Source of the DNA: an uncultured Oscillospiraceae bacterium
Lineage (GTDB): Bacteria > Bacillota > Clostridia > Oscillospirales > Oscillospiraceae
Reading direction: 5' to 3'
DNA: 64,000 bases
NCBI GenBank assembly: GCA_944386985.1
Contig: CALXDD010000007.1
Coordinates: 32,733 to 96,732, forward strand
The notes under the pieces are model-generated. The model was not told the origin of the DNA, searched no databases, and saw nothing but the letters and a program-made list of their open reading frames with translations. Position numbers and translations under genes: made by a program. The first letter of the stretch is position 1. Every line of letters begins with the position of its first letter. Positions 5,728 through 51,884 of this stretch are shown here, piece by piece.

Positions 5728-5793
5728 AAAAAATACTCCTTTCCAACACCGCATATCGCCTTGCCATGGTGTCGTAAAGGAGCTGCCCTTCAC

Positions 5794-5906
5794 GTCTTCT
5801 TCCATCCAGACTATACTGTCGGTACCGGAATCACACCGGTTCCTGCGGCCTTGGGCCGCTCGAGGACTATAACCTCCGGTGGGGACTTACACCCCGCCCT
5901 GAAGAC
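5794..5906 (-). promoter_or_regulatory. FMN riboswitch (RFN element)
   Basis: Read on the minus strand, the segment has the conserved RFN blocks in order: AGGGCGGGGTGTAAGTCCCC, ACCGGAGGTTATAGTCCTCG, a variable GC stem, ACCGGTGTGATTCCGGTACC and GACAGTATAGTCTGGATG. It lies between the promoter at 5929-5956 and ribU. FMN binding is expected to lower riboflavin uptake. The expression platform probably occupies 5730-5793. Confidence 0.95.
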
Positions 5907-5928
5907 GACTATTCGGTTTTCTGTTCTT

Positions 5929-15211: not shown

Positions 15212-15240
15212 TTGTAATTTGAGAAGGACTGTGCTATACT
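15212..15240 (+). promoter_or_regulatory. Promoter of SRP RNA-dnaX
   Basis: TTGTAA (15212-15217) and TATACT (15235-15240) have an exact 17-nt spacer, placing the start near 15247, just before the SRP RNA. Confidence 0.7.
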
Positions 15241-15247
15241 ATTTCCG

Positions 15248-15405
15248 CTATTGAGGAAGATCCTCCGCAAGCATTCCCGTTGAGGAGCCGGTCTCGCGCA
15301 ATGGATGCCCGTGAACCATGTCAGGCGGGGAACCGAGCAGCATTAAGCGGAACACCATGTGCCGCGAGGAAGCCGATTCTGAGGGGATGCTTGCGGAGGG
15401 TTTTC
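15248..15405 (+). ncRNA. ffs: Signal recognition particle RNA
   Basis: The segment carries the SRP domain IV hallmark: ATGTCAGGCGGGGAACCGAG followed by CAGC at about 15317-15341, with the conserved GTCAGG and GAGCAGC flanking the internal loops. Its ends pair over a long helix (CCTCCGCAAGCATTCCC at 15262-15278 with GGGATGCTTGCGGAGG near 15384-15399). Position directly upstream of dnaX matches the Bacillus/Clostridia scr-dnaX order. The exact 5' and 3' ends are estimated from the promoter and the T-rich tail TTTTCCTCTTTT. Confidence 0.92.
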
Positions 15406-15481
15406 CTCTTTTGTGTGTGGAAGGGACGTGATGGGATCATGTCCCTCTTTTTCCATATTCTGCTGAAAAGGAGTGGCTGTC

Positions 15482-42065: not shown

Positions 42066-42790
42066 GCGGTTTCTCTTCTTTTCTCCTCTCGCCAGAGGGG
42101 CGTTTTTCCGCTGACGGGAGTCTTACTATTTTTGTCGGTACCCGACGGTGTACTGAATGGTGTTTTGCCTCCGGCGGGTAACTTTTTGTACGAGCAAAAA
42201 GTCACCAAAAACTCGCTTAGAACCAAGGTTCTAAGGACTCCTTTTCCTCCTATTATGGGAGGTCTTGTTCCGTTTTTGTCGTTACCTTTCAGCGGCTGAC
42301 ACTGCAAGGGGGTGACAATTCCCCTGTTTCCGCGCTTCAAGCGCGCTCCCCTGGTGGTTGTAGGAGCTCTGCTCCTCCGATGCCGAAAGACTTCCCAACG
42401 CCGCAGCAGCTCAACTGCGGAAGAAACGGTAGACGAAGGCATCAGCGTCTACCCAACAGTGTAGCGCGCCGAAGCGCGGTAGTAGTCTATACCGGACACG
42501 TCAACGGAGCGTCGGAGGCAACATGAGCAAAATAGTTAGGGGGGACTGACAGTACACGTCAGAATAAGGGAGTCCTTAGAACCGTTGGTTCTAAGCGAGT
42601 TTTCGCCGAGCCGCAGCGAGGTGTTTCGGAGCGCAACCGAGCGTAGCGAGGCTCTTAGCGCGGAGATGGTGACTTTTCTTCCGCAAGAAAAGTTACCCGC
42701 CGGAGGCAGAACCAGGTGTCGGTATACCGTCGAGTACCGACAAAAGCGTCCTTCCCTTGTCAGAGGGTCAAACACCAGGGGCACTGGTGA
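42066..42790 (-). repeat. R2: long palindrome-rich interspersed element
   Basis: The reverse-complement homologue of R1, between prmC and the DUF1385 gene. Terminal inverted repeats of roughly 100 bp run inward from TTTTTGTCGGTACCCGACGG (about 42107-42126) and its partner near 42720-42745, both leading into GCCTCCGGCGGGTAACTTTT and a hairpin. Interior hairpins match R1 in place but often differ in sequence while keeping pairing, e.g. GACTTTTTG/CAAAAAGTT here against CTACTTTTCT/AGAAAAGTAG in R1. There is no transposase and no convincing ORF. Confidence 0.8.
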
Positions 42791-42801
42791 AGAAATATCC
42801 C

Positions 42802-42860
42802 CTCACCACCGGTCCTTCCCCTTCTCCTCAGGAATCACCAGCTTCATCGCCTCAATGGCC
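42802..42860. repeat. Direct repeat, displaced copy of DUF1385 gene 3' end
   Basis: These 59 bp are identical to 43006-43064, which encodes the last codons and stop of the DUF1385 gene. This outer copy is detached from the gene by the 145-bp S_B insert and codes for nothing. Confidence 0.92.
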
Positions 42861-43005
42861 GCCCCGCAAAATTTTCAATTTTGCGGGGACCCCGTGATTT
42901 GATTCCCGTTTGGCCGAAATAAATCCGGCCAAACCAATTCTCCGCTGCGCTGCGAATTGACGCCGCTTTCGCGGCGAGCGAGGTGGCCACACCTCCTCTG
43001 CCCTG
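42861..43005 (-). mobile_element. S_B: structured insert with four hairpins and target-complementary tail
   Basis: This 145-bp insert lies between 59-bp direct repeats. In plus-strand order: GCCCCG start; hairpin 1 (42862-42873 with 42877-42888, 12 bp); the linker GGGACCCCGTGATTTGATT; hairpin 2 (42908-42916 with 42926-42934); hairpin 3 (CAATTC 42935-42940 with GAATTG 42954-42959); hairpin 4 (CGCCGC/GCGGCG, 42961-42976); then CGAGGTGGCCA (42979-42989), the exact reverse complement of 43060-43070 across the repeat/gene junction. The architecture matches S_A. There is no ORF. Mobility is inferred from the flanking repeats. Confidence 0.75.
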
Positions 43006-43064
43006 CTCACCACCGGTCCTTCCCCTTCTCCTCAGGAATCACCAGCTTCATCGCCTCAATGGCC
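43006..43064. repeat. Direct repeat, functional copy at DUF1385 gene 3' end
   Basis: The inner copy of the 59-bp repeat. It supplies the in-frame C-terminus ending KLVIPEEKGKDRW. Perfect identity to 42802-42860 suggests a recent event. Confidence 0.92.
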
Positions 43065-43963
43065 ACCTCGATCATGGAGTCGTCCGGCTCATTGGTGGTA
43101 AAATTCTGCATCCACATGCCCGGCCGGGCCAGAAAATTGGTCAGCGGATTGTCGTGGCCGCCCACATAGCGGTTAAACTCATAGGTAATTCCTACCACCA
43201 GCGGCAGCAGCAAAATCTGAATCAAAATCCGCAGCAGCAGATTGTCTACCGGCCAAATGGCAAAAATCACACTGTGAAACAAAATGGCAACAATAATTAC
43301 CACAAACAAAAAGCTCGTCCCGCACCGGGGGTGGTGCTTGGGCTGGGGCCGCACGTTTTCCACTGTCAGCTCCAGGCCCTTCTCATAGCAGAAAATCGTC
43401 TTGTGCTCCGCCCCATGGTAAGCAAACACCCGCTTGATATCCTTCTGATGGGACACTAAAATCAAATACCCCATAAAAATAACCACCCGCAGCACCGCAT
43501 CCACCAAATTGCGGATGACCTCGCTGTCGGTGAACCGCTGGACCAGACTGGCCAGGGTGGTGGGGATCAGCATAAACAGCAGCAGAGAAAAAGCGATGGC
43601 CACCACCACAGAAAATCCAATGACCACCTTCTCCATCTTCTCGTTGCCCAGCTTCTTGTCCAACCACTGCTCAAACTTCGAGGGCTCTGTCACCTCTTCC
43701 TCAGGGAAGTAATCCGCCGAAAACATCAGCGCCTTTACACCCTTGACCATGCTGTCCAGAAAGGTGACCCCTCCCCGGATGATGGGCAGGCCCAAAATGG
43801 GATACCGGTCCCGGATCATCTTCAGCTGCTCCACCTTGGTCACCAGTCCCTCCGGGCTGCGCACCACAATGGCCTGCTTCTCCGGCCCCCGCATCATAAT
43901 CCCCTCGATCAGGGCCTGCCCGCCGATGGAGGTGCGAAAGCCGGTCTGTTTTTCTTTTTCCAT
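43007..43963 (-). CDS. DUF1385 membrane protein (YqhQ-like)
   Basis: The 318-aa protein starts MEKEKQTGFRTSIGGQALIEGIMMRGPEKQA, the DUF1385 signature, and has about four membrane helices (about 118-142, 170-190, 225-245, 250-270), with the conserved YHGAEHKTIFCYEKG (about 184-198) and HPRCGTSFLFVV motifs. DUF1385 genes commonly precede prmC-prfA in Clostridia; a link to peptidoglycan or translation is unproven. The last 19 codons and stop lie in a 59-bp direct repeat duplicated downstream by S_B. Confidence 0.92.
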   Translation of the reverse strand: MEKEKQTGFRTSIGGQALIEGIMMRGPEKQAIVVRSPEGLVTKVEQLKMIRDRYPILGLPIIRGGVTFLDSMVKGVKALMFSADYFPEEEVTEPSKFEQWLDKKLGNEKMEKVVIGFSVVVAIAFSLLLFMLIPTTLASLVQRFTDSEVIRNLVDAVLRVVIFMGYLILVSHQKDIKRVFAYHGAEHKTIFCYEKGLELTVENVRPQPKHHPRCGTSFLFVVIIVAILFHSVIFAIWPVDNLLLRILIQILLLPLVVGITYEFNRYVGGHDNPLTNFLARPGMWMQNFTTNEPDDSMIEVAIEAMKLVIPEEKGKDRW

Positions 43964-44031
43964 AGTACCTATTGTTCCTTTCCAGGGCTATTCTATCACA
44001 GCTGCATTGATTTTGCAACAAATGTTCCATT

Positions 44032-45447
44032 TCATTGTGCCATAGGCAGCACGATGGTAACGATGGTCCCGCCGCCTACTGCGTTATTGATGTCAAACTC
44101 GCCGTTATGGAGATGGATGATCTCGTCGCACACCGCGAGACCAATACCGGAGCCCCGGGCCTTGGAGGAACCCTTGTAGAACTTCTGCTTGACGTAGGGC
44201 AGCTCCTCCTCCGGGATACCGGGTCCGTAGTCCCGTACAGTCAGAACGATGGTATCGTTCTCCTGACGGATGGCAGCGTCGATCCGCTTTCCCGCGCCGC
44301 CGTGCTTGGCGGCGTTGTCCAGCACATTGCAGAACACCTGCTTGAGCCGTTCCGAGTCCCCGGCGATGGGCTCGATGATCTGGCCGCCGTCGTCATAGCG
44401 GAGTTCAATGCCGTCCTGCCGCAGCAGGGCCCGGTAAGTGTAGATGGTGTCCTCAAACTCCGCTTGAACGTCGGCTTGCTCCACATGGAGGGTAAACCGG
44501 CCATCCTCCATGCGGCTGAAGTCCAGCAGTTCCTCCACCATGCTGGTGAGGCGGCGGGACTCCTTGAGGATGATCCCGATGCCCTTCCGCAGCTCCTCGG
44601 GACTGCTGTCCCCTGCCAAAAGCGTCTCGCCCCAGCCGTTGATGGCGGTGAGGGGCGTCCGCAGTTCATGGGACACAGAGGAAATAAACTCAGACTTCAC
44701 CTTCTCCGACTGTCCAATCTTTGTGGACATATCGTTGATGGAGTCGATGAGTTCTCCGATCTCGTCCCGGTATTTGTTTTCCACCTGGATACCGTAACTC
44801 CCGCCGGAGATCCGTTTGGCAGTGGCCGTCACCTCCGCCACCGGCTCCACCACATTGGTAATCAGCACCAAGTTGGAGAAGTACACCATGGTCAAAGCCG
44901 CTACGCCCACCAGCACGGCAATCAGAATGCTGATGAGGATTTGACGGTTGGCAAGATCCATGGCGGTTACATACCGCATGGCCCCCACCACCCGGCCGTC
45001 AAACTCCAGAGGGGCGGACACCGACATAATCGTCTGCCCTGTGGCGGGGTCCTCTCCCATATAGGGTTCAATCTCCCCCTCAGTCAGGGCGGCGGTGATA
45101 TCCGGCGTGGAGGGCATCAGTCCGGCGGTAACGCCGTAGGTAGACACCTCAATGCGCCCATTGCTGTCGATGAACTGCAGCTCCAGATAGTCCTTATCCT
45201 GGAAGGACTCGGTGTAGCTGCGGGCCATCTGGATATACTCGTTATAGCTGTTCATGGAGTAGGTATTGAAGGCGTTGGCCGCCTCCTTGGCCTTGGACTC
45301 CAGGCCGGTCCGCATACCGGTGTAGTAGTAGTTGGCAATACTGACAGAGAATACCGCGATGCACAGCAGTGCCACCATCACGATGGGACCCAGGGAGTTA
45401 ATGAGCCAGCGCTTGCGAAGGCCCTTGATCCGGATTTCCTTTTTCAC
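44032..45447 (-). CDS. Sensor histidine kinase with HAMP domain
   Basis: The 471-aa membrane kinase has helix 1 (about 14-40), an extracellular sensor domain (about 40-163), helix 2 (about 164-190) and a HAMP linker. HisKA has the phosphoacceptor in ISSVSHELRTPLTAINGWGE (His near 261), and the HATPase domain shows NVLDNAAKHG, DYGPGIPEEELP and GSGIGLAVCDEI. The start is a GTG at 45447 with AAAGGAGG 10 nt upstream. It pairs with the response regulator upstream, although an S_A insert separates the two. The signal is unknown; the layout resembles WalK/ResE-type envelope sensors. Confidence 0.92.
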   Translation of the reverse strand: MKKEIRIKGLRKRWLINSLGPIVMVALLCIAVFSVSIANYYYTGMRTGLESKAKEAANAFNTYSMNSYNEYIQMARSYTESFQDKDYLELQFIDSNGRIEVSTYGVTAGLMPSTPDITAALTEGEIEPYMGEDPATGQTIMSVSAPLEFDGRVVGAMRYVTAMDLANRQILISILIAVLVGVAALTMVYFSNLVLITNVVEPVAEVTATAKRISGGSYGIQVENKYRDEIGELIDSINDMSTKIGQSEKVKSEFISSVSHELRTPLTAINGWGETLLAGDSSPEELRKGIGIILKESRRLTSMVEELLDFSRMEDGRFTLHVEQADVQAEFEDTIYTYRALLRQDGIELRYDDGGQIIEPIAGDSERLKQVFCNVLDNAAKHGGAGKRIDAAIRQENDTIVLTVRDYGPGIPEEELPYVKQKFYKGSSKARGSGIGLAVCDEIIHLHNGEFDINNAVGGGTIVTIVLPMAQ

Positions 45448-45510
45448 TTGTACGGGCCTCCTTTCCGCTGACGGGATTCAAATTCAAGATGGCTTCAGCG
45501 ACAGAATCAG

Positions 45511-45572
45511 AATCCCCACTTATACCCACCCCCCACACTGTAGTGATATAAATAGGATTCTGCGCGTTGTCT
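45511..45572. repeat. Direct repeat, displaced decayed copy of response regulator 3' end
   Basis: These 62 bp are about 90% identical to 45724-45786 (five substitutions, one indel). Translated on the minus strand it still reads DNAQNPIYITTVWG, but a one-base change shifts the frame afterwards. It is a relic of the original gene end. Confidence 0.88.
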
Positions 45573-45723
45573 GCCCCGAGAAATAACATTTCACGGGGAC
45601 CCCCTTATTTGATCTTGGATGGGACAAATGAATTGTCCCATCCCAAGGTTTTGCCTCCGGCAAAACGCTTGTACGCCGCACCTGCGGCGGGAATCGAAGA
45701 CAACGCTCCTGTCACCCTCTTAA
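45573..45723 (-). mobile_element. S_A: structured insert with four hairpins and target-complementary tail
   Basis: This 151-bp insert lies between the response regulator and kinase genes. In plus-strand order: GCCCCG start; hairpin 1 (CCCCG/CGGGG and GAAAT/ATTTC); linker GGGACCCCCTTATTTGATCT; hairpin 2 (GGATGGGACAA 45617-45627 with 45633-45643); hairpin 3 (GTTTTGCC 45648-45655 with GGCAAAAC 45659-45666); hairpin 4 (CGCCGCA/TGCGGCG 45674-45689); then ATCGAAGACAACGC (45693-45706), the exact reverse complement of 45778-45791 spanning the repeat/gene junction. Same layout as S_B with different stem sequences. Confidence 0.75.
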
Positions 45724-46418
45724 AATCCCCACTTATACCCAAACCCCCACACTGTAGTAATGTAGGTAGGATTCTGCGCGTTGTCTTCGATCTTCAGCCT
45801 CAGGCGGCGGATGTTCACATCCACGATCTTCAACTCGCCAAAGTAATCCCGGCCCCACACCGTGTCCAGAATCTCCTCCCGGCTCAGTGCCTTTCCAGGA
45901 TTCTCCATGAACATCCGCATAATGGAATACTCCACCTGAGTCAGCTTCACCCGCTCCCCGTTCTTCTCCAGGGTGCGGTTGCGGGTATTCAGCCGGAAGG
46001 GGGGCTGTACAATCTCCCCGGGCTGCTCCGGAGCGGCCATCACCGAGCCTCCCGCCCGGCGGAACAGGGCGTCCACCCGGGCTGTCAGCTCCGCCGGTGA
46101 GAAGGGCTTGGTCACATAATCGTCGGCCCCGGTCATGAGACCCGTCACCTTGTCCATCTCCTGGCTGCGGGCTGTCAGCATAATGATGCCGATAGTGGTA
46201 TTGGTGGCCCGGATCCGCCGGCACACCTCAAAGCCGTCGATGCCGGGCAGCATGATGTCCAGCAGCGCCACCCGCACATCGGTATTCTTCTGCAAAAGCT
46301 CCAACGCCTGCTCCCCGGTCTCCGCCTCGATCACCTCGTAGCCCGCCCGGGTCAGATTGATCACAATGAACCCGCGGATGCTGGATTCATCCTCCAAAAC
46401 CAGTACCTTCCTTGTCAT
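45720..46418 (-). CDS. OmpR-family response regulator
   Basis: The 232-aa product has a receiver domain (1-120) with the acidic pair at 9-11, phosphoacceptor Asp54 in ALLDIMLPG and Lys in YVTKPFSPAE, followed by a winged-helix DNA-binding domain (about 130-232; ILDTVWGRDYFGELKIVDVNIRRLR). It lies between the lipoprotein gene (upstream) and its kinase (downstream). Its final ~20 codons are within the direct repeat tied to S_A. ATG 46418 follows GGAGGA. Confidence 0.94.
   Translation of the reverse strand: MTRKVLVLEDESSIRGFIVINLTRAGYEVIEAETGEQALELLQKNTDVRVALLDIMLPGIDGFEVCRRIRATNTTIGIIMLTARSQEMDKVTGLMTGADDYVTKPFSPAELTARVDALFRRAGGSVMAAPEQPGEIVQPPFRLNTRNRTLEKNGERVKLTQVEYSIMRMFMENPGKALSREEILDTVWGRDYFGELKIVDVNIRRLRLKIEDNAQNPTYITTVWGFGYKWGF
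45724..45786. repeat. Direct repeat, functional copy at response regulator 3' end
   Basis: These 63 bp encode the in-frame end DNAQNPTYITTVWGFGYKWGF and its stop. They are paired with the decayed copy at 45511-45572, 213-214 bp away. Confidence 0.88.
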
Positions 46419-51797: not shown

Positions 51798-51884
51798 TGG
51801 TGCCGGTGACCGGACTCGAACCGGTACGCTGTCGCCAGCGGTGGATTTTGAGTCCACTACGTCTACCAATTCCATCACACCGGC
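51798..51884 (-). tRNA. tRNA-Leu (anticodon CAA)
   Basis: An 87-nt class II tRNA on the minus strand. The acceptor is GCCGGTG with CACCGGC, and the CCA end is encoded. The anticodon arm GTGGA-CTCAAAA-TCCAC gives anticodon CAA (reads UUG). It has a variable arm of class II size and a T arm ACCGG-TTCGAGT-CCGGT. A long variable arm and G-rich D arm are as expected for leucine. Confidence 0.95.

What the first reader, a model, noticed from the sequence alone, without database searches (positions are those of the whole stretch)
42861..45791. Two copies of a four-hairpin element, each with a tail complementary to its own insertion site
S_B and S_A lie in unrelated loci yet share start (GCCCCG), the linker GGGACCCC followed by TTTGAT, four hairpins in the same order and spacing, length (145 and 151 bp) and orientation relative to the gene. 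Stem sequences differ while pairing is kept. Beginning 2-3 nt after hairpin 4, each carries a segment that is an exact reverse complement of the gene sequence straddling the outer repeat junction: 14 nt in S_A (45693-45706 with 45778-45791) and 11 nt in S_B (42979-42989 with 43060-43070). Element sequence is shared but this segment is locus-specific. That is what a guide or target-pairing segment would look like. Read in gene orientation it sits 5' of the hairpin scaffold, the order used by IscB-type omega RNAs; kinship to those is pure speculation.
Basis: partly seen in the sequence, partly recalled or inferred. Interest (0 to 1): 0.92.

Follow-up and report, generated by a model that had tools for sequence, protein, structure and literature searches.

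The report
Guide-bearing hairpin elements at gene ends
Gut bacteria of the Flavonifractor group carry a non-coding, apparently mobile element that sits in the end of conserved genes, supplies a spare copy of the gene's end so nothing breaks, and often carries a short stretch matching its own insertion site, which looks like a built-in address label.

Summary
Own genome: 38 model hits at E<=0.01. All 11 genomes of the genus have hits (10-60 each); 20 of 147 genomes drawn from the order do. It occurs in Flavonifractor plautii, a complete isolate genome and phage contigs.

One unit = copy of a gene's end (C1), tail (T), and four stems (H4-H1, strong covariation). It sits at point X inside a gene and leaves the native end (C2) downstream. 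T is complementary to the gene across X: in loci from public genomes 48 of 77 duplicated sites have at least 9 exact nt, against 1.35% of 5,842 mismatched pairs. T changes together with the target at five positions in four genes.

C1/C2 differences are mostly synonymous (125 v 24; neutral 33 v 116) and empty orthologues exist: signs of recurrent insertion (homing), not old drift.

IscB kinship fails: no HEARO match, no IscB. TnpB, Y1, RT and IS110 proteins do not track the element. The partner is unknown, and 29 of 77 sites lack a clear tail match.

Best reading: a structured-RNA homing element whose tail addresses its target. The guide role and the chemistry are inferred.

The parts
45574..45691 (-). 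S_A four-stem module (H4-H3-H2-GGGGTCCCC-H1), read in gene sense
   Evidence: CM hit 5.4e-24 in own genome (S_A was in the model); covariation of family
45693..45706 (-). S_A tail T, 14 nt exact reverse complement of 45778-45791 across X
45724..45786 (-). S_A C1: end of the response-regulator gene in use (X lies between 45786 and 45787)
45511..45572 (-). S_A C2: displaced, now frameshifted copy of the gene end
   Evidence: repeats D2/D6
45720..46418 (-). host gene of S_A, response regulator (Response_reg, Trans_reg_C)
   Evidence: orthologues empty in G007, G006, G001, G010, G003, G009, G004 and filled in G008, G005, G002
42862..42978 (-). S_B four-stem module
   Evidence: CM hit 5.4e-15 (S_B was not in the model)
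42979..42989 (-). S_B tail T, 11 nt exact (12 bp with G.U) complement of 43060-43070 across X
43006..43064 (-). S_B C1: end of the DUF1385 gene in use (X between 43064 and 43065)
42802..42860 (-). S_B C2: displaced native end, no difference from C1 over the 18 codons compared
43007..43963 (-). host gene of S_B, DUF1385 protein
   Evidence: empty in G007, G008, G006, G005, G001, G010; element without C2 in G004

Best explanation
A non-autonomous homing element whose functional molecule is a structured RNA. SHOWN: the unit [C1 - short spacer - T - H4 H3 H2 H1] sits at point X inside a gene, usually near its 3' end. C1 re-supplies the gene's end, so the host gene stays intact, and the native end is left downstream as C2. 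The stems covary, on the gene-sense strand. In most units T is complementary to the gene across X, with X usually 2-6 nt from the module-proximal end of the duplex, and T follows target changes between species at several positions. INFERRED: the folded RNA uses T to address X in alleles and orthologues that lack the element; an unidentified partner cuts or nicks there. The H1 end is joined to the native end (0-4 odd nt lie at that joint in 40 of 41 sites) and the other side is resolved through homology in C1 and the gene, so C1 and C2 are renewed by repeated gain and loss. UNKNOWN: the partner enzyme, how a new T arises, and why a minority of elements lack T.
For: Family and spread. Structure: 95.0% of 2,315 cells paired, 30 of 36 pairs with two-sided changes, covariation 0.482 v 0.129 shuffled. 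G.T 56 v A.C 8 cells in the stems (24 v 8 without one pair), which favours RNA of the sense strand. Tail. Tail and target covary at Era column 11, IF2 columns 5 and 8, RR column 11 and AspS column 14 (checked). Joint. Insertion at X with empty orthologues. Constraint on C2: 125 synonymous v 24 nonsynonymous in 39 loci, neutral 33/116. C1-C2 distance within a locus is on the whole below that between species (0.065 v about 0.27 pooled; about 6% v 17% in the five genes whose ends align, my sum). Stop codon near the end of the duplication.
Against: No partner protein was found: RVT_1, Y1_Tnp, IscB, TnpB and IS110 do not track the element. In one search, 9 of 24 sites have 6 nt or less; sigma-factor and argF units have no tail yet recur in several species, so T is not strictly needed. 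Close species pairs do not show renewal clearly: in Era G000/G008 the two C2s differ less (4/52) than C1 and C2 within each (7 and 8 of 52), and in AspS and IF2 the closely related species differ about as much as the copies do. Several tail-target cells do not pair. The target stays intact at the gene-C1 joint, so an active guide would also attack filled sites. Expression and movement were not observed. Gene conversion could also keep C1 and C2 alike.
Confidence: 0.5

Rival explanations
1. Ancient, immobile hairpin repeats flanked by gene-end direct repeats; recombination between C1 and C2 (gene conversion, slippage, unequal crossing) keeps the copies alike and makes tandem arrays; T is selected as an mRNA 3'-end stem.
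For: Tandem arrays at several loci in the own genome; gene-specific element lineages shared between species (by eye); RNA stems with strong folding; shared C2 of Era in G000 and G008.
Against: If C2 were unused and only occasionally converted it should show mostly nonsynonymous changes, but 125 of 149 differences are synonymous. Empty orthologues are common. A unit also sits in a phage terminase gene. T is complementary to the insertion point, not to an arbitrary place in the gene.
Confidence: 0.2
2. Intron-like RNA: T is an internal guide sequence that aligns U and C2, and the unit is removed from the RNA (group I-like logic), so C2 is translated and constrained.
For: T pairs across the exon junction as an internal guide sequence would; C2 keeps frame and stop at many loci; RNA-type stems.
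Against: C1 keeps a complete coding end with its own stop, which an intron would not need; S_A's C2 is frameshifted; the 3' joint carries 0-4 variable nt, once 21; no Rfam intron match in the stretches searched.
Confidence: 0.12
3. Single-strand DNA transposition by a HUH-type enzyme: T and the CCCC of H1 act like the guide sequences of IS200/IS605 ends.
For: Layout resembles left and right ends of IS608 (recalled): cleavage site, guide 5' of hairpin; guide, hairpin, cleavage site.
Against: Y1_Tnp found in 8 of 20 element-bearing and 8 of 20 other genomes, absent from G151, G081, G115, G001, G002, G004, G005, G008 and four genomes of family f6; G.T excess over A.C points to RNA; tail matches are mostly 8-19 nt, not about 4.
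Confidence: 0.1
4. omega-RNA of an IscB- or TnpB-like nuclease acting in trans.
For: Guide 5' of scaffold; X near the scaffold-proximal end of the duplex.
Against: No HEARO match; IscB and TnpB do not track.
Confidence: 0.03

Closest known systems
IscB omega-RNA / HEARO
   Same: short guide-like segment 5' of a multi-stem scaffold; insertion point inside the duplex near the scaffold
   Different: no Rfam HEARO match, no IscB gene, the segment is an inverted copy of the host gene across X rather than flanking DNA, gene end is duplicated
IS200/IS605 ends, REPINs and RAYTs (features recalled)
   Same: short non-coding hairpin elements moved in trans, guide-to-cleavage-site pairing in IS608
   Different: longer tail, long gene-end copy, no tracking Y1 protein
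Group I and group II introns, IStrons (features recalled)
   Same: internal guide pairing across the exon joint, homing to the same site, harmless to the host gene
   Different: no intron match in Rfam, C1 holds the complete gene end, no maturase or endonuclease inside the units read
Prophages and islands in icd, tRNA and similar genes (recalled)
   Same: element replaces the 3' end of a conserved gene with its own synonymous copy
   Different: about 200 bp, no integrase, dozens of copies at many different genes per genome
Diversity-generating retroelements (recalled)
   Same: hairpin just after a gene's end and a second copy of that end downstream
   Different: differences between copies mostly synonymous, no reverse transcriptase in the unit; adenine bias was not tested
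IS110 bridge RNA (features recalled)
   Same: RNA-addressed insertion with the exchange point inside the matched target
   Different: single contiguous tail, no recombinase in the unit, family does not track strictly

Membership tests
IscB / HEARO | HEARO RNA fold | tested here: not met
   (window and five further loci)
IscB / HEARO | IscB protein in the genome | tested here: not met
   0 of 40 genomes over cut-off; one weak hit inside a 1,369-aa ORF of G021
IscB / HEARO | guide 5' of scaffold | tested here: met
   (position only; activity not tested)
TnpB omega-RNA | TnpB in the genome | tested here: not met
   over cut-off in 6 of 40 genomes, three of them element-bearing (G000, G001, G125) out of 20
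IS200/IS605, REPIN | Y1 transposase in the genome | tested here: not met
   16 of 40 genomes: 8 of 20 element-bearing, 8 of 20 others
IS110 bridge RNA | DEDD recombinase in the genome | tested here: not met
   over cut-off in 10 of 40: 8 of 20 element-bearing, 2 of 20 others; no hit in G001-G004 and G008 although they carry the element
Retroelement (group II intron, retron, DGR) | a shared reverse transcriptase | tested here: not met
   15 of 30 genomes with RVT_1; none in G003, G015, G036, G050, G041, G092, G043; no type shared by all
Group I / group II intron | Rfam intron match | tested here: not met
Group I intron | guide aligning both exons | tested here: met
   T pairs across U|C; splicing not tested
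Homing element | insertion at the same point in orthologues, with empty alleles | tested here: met
Homing element | transfer observed | not testable with these tools
   needs strains or experiment

The most novel reading that the evidence does not exclude
A natural counterpart of prime editing: the element's RNA pairs by its 5' tail with one strand of the target gene, the displaced strand is nicked at X, its 3' end is extended into the RNA's H1 end (giving the 0-4 extra nt), and copying runs on through the tail and the gene's own end, which recombines with the gene and repairs it. A new RNA-guided class of mobile element without its own protein, patching the gene it enters.
Probability: 0.18. 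Interest if true: 0.97.

Novelty: categorically new. Interest (0 to 1): 0.86.

Why it matters
If the tail is an address, this would be a further kind of RNA-directed DNA insertion, carried by a very small element that repairs the gene it enters and hence could spread without visible damage in common gut bacteria. The partner enzyme would be worth finding for its own sake. It would also explain a class of gene-end duplications that annotation may treat as noise. Hosts include named isolates (F. plautii ATCC 29863), so tests are possible.

Tried and rejected
Rejected: Rfam families in the stretches searched (window; L002, L005, L006, L008, L019; window 42700-45900); IscB, TnpB, Y1, RVT_1 and IS110 as sole partners. 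Autonomous copies with an ORF: of 79 loci, 27 had a weak or no near duplication; none of these had an upstream copy of the downstream flank scoring above 36 within the 1.5 kb or less at hand (L106 has an inverted match, L073 one further downstream). Pairing of tail-less elements elsewhere in the module was not above control windows. A PAM-like motif beside the duplex: only a weak A(-4)G(-3)G(-2) before X in 41 sites. Plasmids: no match; phages collection: one unannotated record with partial matches. Literature: searches gave no description of this element; listings and abstract starts were seen, no paper was opened; subscription journals and bioRxiv are not held.

Facts marked recalled come from no call. 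Rows dropped: L093-L098 were never extracted (strand not listed); one search left out 11 duplicated loci without a long ORF and loci under the score limit, three more gave no codon, and L047 is counted there in the wrong frame (1 synonymous, 3 nonsynonymous, against the reading); I sorted 44 loci into tail and no tail from earlier results, and 8 of the 30 'tail' loci did not beat their controls, mostly because the duplication alignment ran into the tail; one search left out 32 of 109 places without detectable duplication; one search collapsed sites alike at 16 of 20 positions; one search left out the two outer H2 pairs; one search used only rows with a run of at least 7 and chose each row's register by best match, which leans towards pairing. 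In some searches I had labelled RR of G003, G009 and G004 as filled; one search shows them empty, so RR columns 17 and 18, which rested on G009, are withdrawn.

Full report
What is there. Read in the sense of the host gene, each is: gene, point X, the gene's last tens of nucleotides with stop (C1), a short spacer, the tail T, stem H4, stem H3, stem H2 with a conserved loop around ATTCA, a linker with AAAT, GGGGTCCCC, stem H1 ending GGGG or GGGA, 0-4 odd nucleotides, then a second copy of the gene's end (C2) and the native downstream sequence. The host genes in the window are a response regulator and a DUF1385 protein (Pfam). A DNA search and a pattern search found further copies. A covariance model gave 49 matches at E<=10 in the own genome, 38 of them at E<=0.01, and hits in 11 of 11 genomes of the genus, 10 to 60 each.

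Wider spread. In an even draw of the order, 20 of 147 genomes of at least 90% completeness have a hit at E<=0.001. The 80 titles shown are mostly Oscillospiraceae (Flavonifractor plautii ATCC 29863, Pseudoflavonifractor, Intestinimonas, Oscillibacter valericigenes) or uncultured Clostridia, and include the complete genome of Clostridiales bacterium CCNA10. Two viral contigs carry it; in L381 it follows the terminase gene (my reading of the ORF) with a 95-nt gene-end copy and, by reading the printed sequence, a 19-nt exact tail match. The other contig, L380, shows no gene-end copy. The complete isolate genome shows the same anatomy (L268, L282, L285), which speaks against an assembly artefact.

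Structure. On 66 distinct rows, 95.0% of cells pair, 30 of 36 pairs have two-sided changes, and the covariation score is 0.482 against 0.129 in shuffles and at most 0.093 when slid (the alignment was fitted to the model, which favours it). In the stems there are 56 G.T and 8 A.C cells, 24 and 8 without the pair that is often G.U. A double-stranded cruciform would not be expected to give such asymmetry, so the gene-sense RNA is the likelier folded molecule. Each of S_A and S_B with its upstream target folds better than all 200 shuffles (z about -6), with T paired to the target.

The tail. In the own genome 30 loci were given and 24 had a duplication; longest exact complementarity between tail and the 30 nt around X was 3 to 16 nt, 12 of 24 at 9 or more, against 4 of 552 mismatched pairs, two of which are two copies at the same gene. 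In relatives, 17 of 49 loci reach 10 or more (that list includes loci without duplication). In the loci, 109 places had enough flank, 77 had a duplication, and 48 of 77 reached 9 nt, against 1.35% of 5,842 mismatched pairs; in 35 of those 48 pairing starts 2 to 6 nt upstream of X. T abuts the module, or an extra GGGGCCCC hairpin that precedes H4 in some copies. Of 30 loci that I had sorted as tail-bearing, 22 beat every control window; of 14 sorted as tail-less, none does. The tail-less ones include the sigma-factor and argF units.

Tail and target change together. For nine gene sites in up to 11 species, target positions that vary inside the duplex were listed with the tail base. Both sides changed with pairing kept at Era column 11, IF2 columns 5 and 8, RR column 11 and AspS column 14; the two IF2 columns both set G000 apart, so they may be one event. 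RR columns 17 and 18 are withdrawn. There are also unmatched cells (for example Pgi G004, AspS G006b, Era column 5, RR columns 5 and 20), and one Udp unit (G002) has lost the match to its C1.

Insertion and turnover. Empty orthologues exist for Era, AspS, IF2, RR, DUF1385, RnhA, RF2, Udp and Pgi among the 11 species, and where a close relative is empty (Era in G007) its sequence after the stop continues as after C2 in the filled species. So the unit C1-T-module lies between X and the native end. The same X is reused across species and, at Pgi, a second X is shared by two other genera (G055, G197). Comparing C1 with C2 in 39 loci: 125 synonymous and 24 nonsynonymous differences, 33 and 116 expected without constraint (loci at the same gene in several species are not independent). 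C2 was thus a working gene end during most of the divergence. Within a locus C1 and C2 differ less (0.065) than C1s or C2s between species (0.272, 0.277). The pooled between-species values are inflated by AspS, IF2 and Udp pairs whose ends differ in length; summing the other five genes gives 53/936 within, 168/957 C1-C1 and 163/957 C2-C2. For the closest species pairs the difference vanishes or turns round (Era G000/G008, AspS, IF2). Old drift alone cannot give the synonymous excess; recurrent insertion into the same site, or conversion under strong constraint, can. S_A's C2 is frameshifted, so C2 need not work afterwards.

Gene ends. Of 77 duplicated places, 62 have a long sense ORF that stops in C1 or tail; in 43 of 62 the stop ends within 10 nt of the end of the duplication, in 24 exactly there or one nt before. 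Seven have an antisense ORF that starts there, by a mechanical rule. In the own genome one unit (L047) sits over the first codons of a gene read the other way (my reading). Pfam confirms a GTPase with KH domain (Era), phosphoglucose isomerase, RNase H, a class II D/K/N tRNA synthetase (called AspS here) and a release-factor domain (RF2); other gene names are my reading. The point X shows a weak AGG before it.

Partner. RVT_1, Y1_Tnp, RRXRR, Cas12f1-like TnpB and IS110 DEDD were searched in 30 or 40 genomes with and without the element; none tracks it. Two are commoner with the element: IS110 over cut-off in 8 of 20 element-bearing and 2 of 20 other genomes, and RVT_1 in 8 of 9 element-rich and 2 of 6 poor genomes of the same family. 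But five genus genomes with many elements lack IS110, G003 with 38 hits lacks RVT_1, and of the 19 RT ORFs pulled out two (G151b, probably the wrong frame, and G055a) match no other, while the rest fall into groups with no type shared by all.

Reading. I commit to a homing element of structured RNA with an address tail (0.5; the loss of two covarying columns does not move this much). Shown: anatomy, covariation of stems, site-matched tail and some covariation, empty sites, constraint on C2. Inferred: that T directs a cut at X, that H1 is joined there, and that homology resolves the other side. Not known: the partner, the origin of a new T, and the meaning of tail-less units. Literature searches in the held library gave no precedent (listings only).

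Noticed in passing
window 42160-42760: Another dispersed repeat (GTTTTGCCTCCGGCGG ... CGCTTAGAACCAAGGTTCTAAG...); similar stretches follow DUF1385 in G007 and G008 (L226, L182) and IF2 in G008 (L208), seen by eye.
   Followed up: no
L087, L088, L090, L104-L106 (genomes of family f6, genus g14): Copies that show no gene-end duplication, in at least one case (L087) behind another module; these small genomes have many hits, yet no RVT_1 (three tested), Y1 or IS110 hit (four tested).
   Followed up: partly
L036, L038, L045, L046, L083, L099, L285, L329, L381: Long form with an extra 5' GGGGCCCC-hairpin-GGGG between tail and H4, mirroring GGGGTCCCC-H1-GGGG at the 3' end.
   Followed up: partly
L380 4895-5014 and 8596-8715: Viral contig with two modules between phage genes, without a detectable gene-end copy.
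   Followed up: partly
window 5790-5910, 15234-15420, 51801-51884: FMN riboswitch, large SRP RNA and a tRNA (Rfam).
   Followed up: no
L164 (G003 RnhA) and L191 (G005 Pgi): Relics that keep the tail after the stop codon but have lost module and C2 (by eye).
   Followed up: partly
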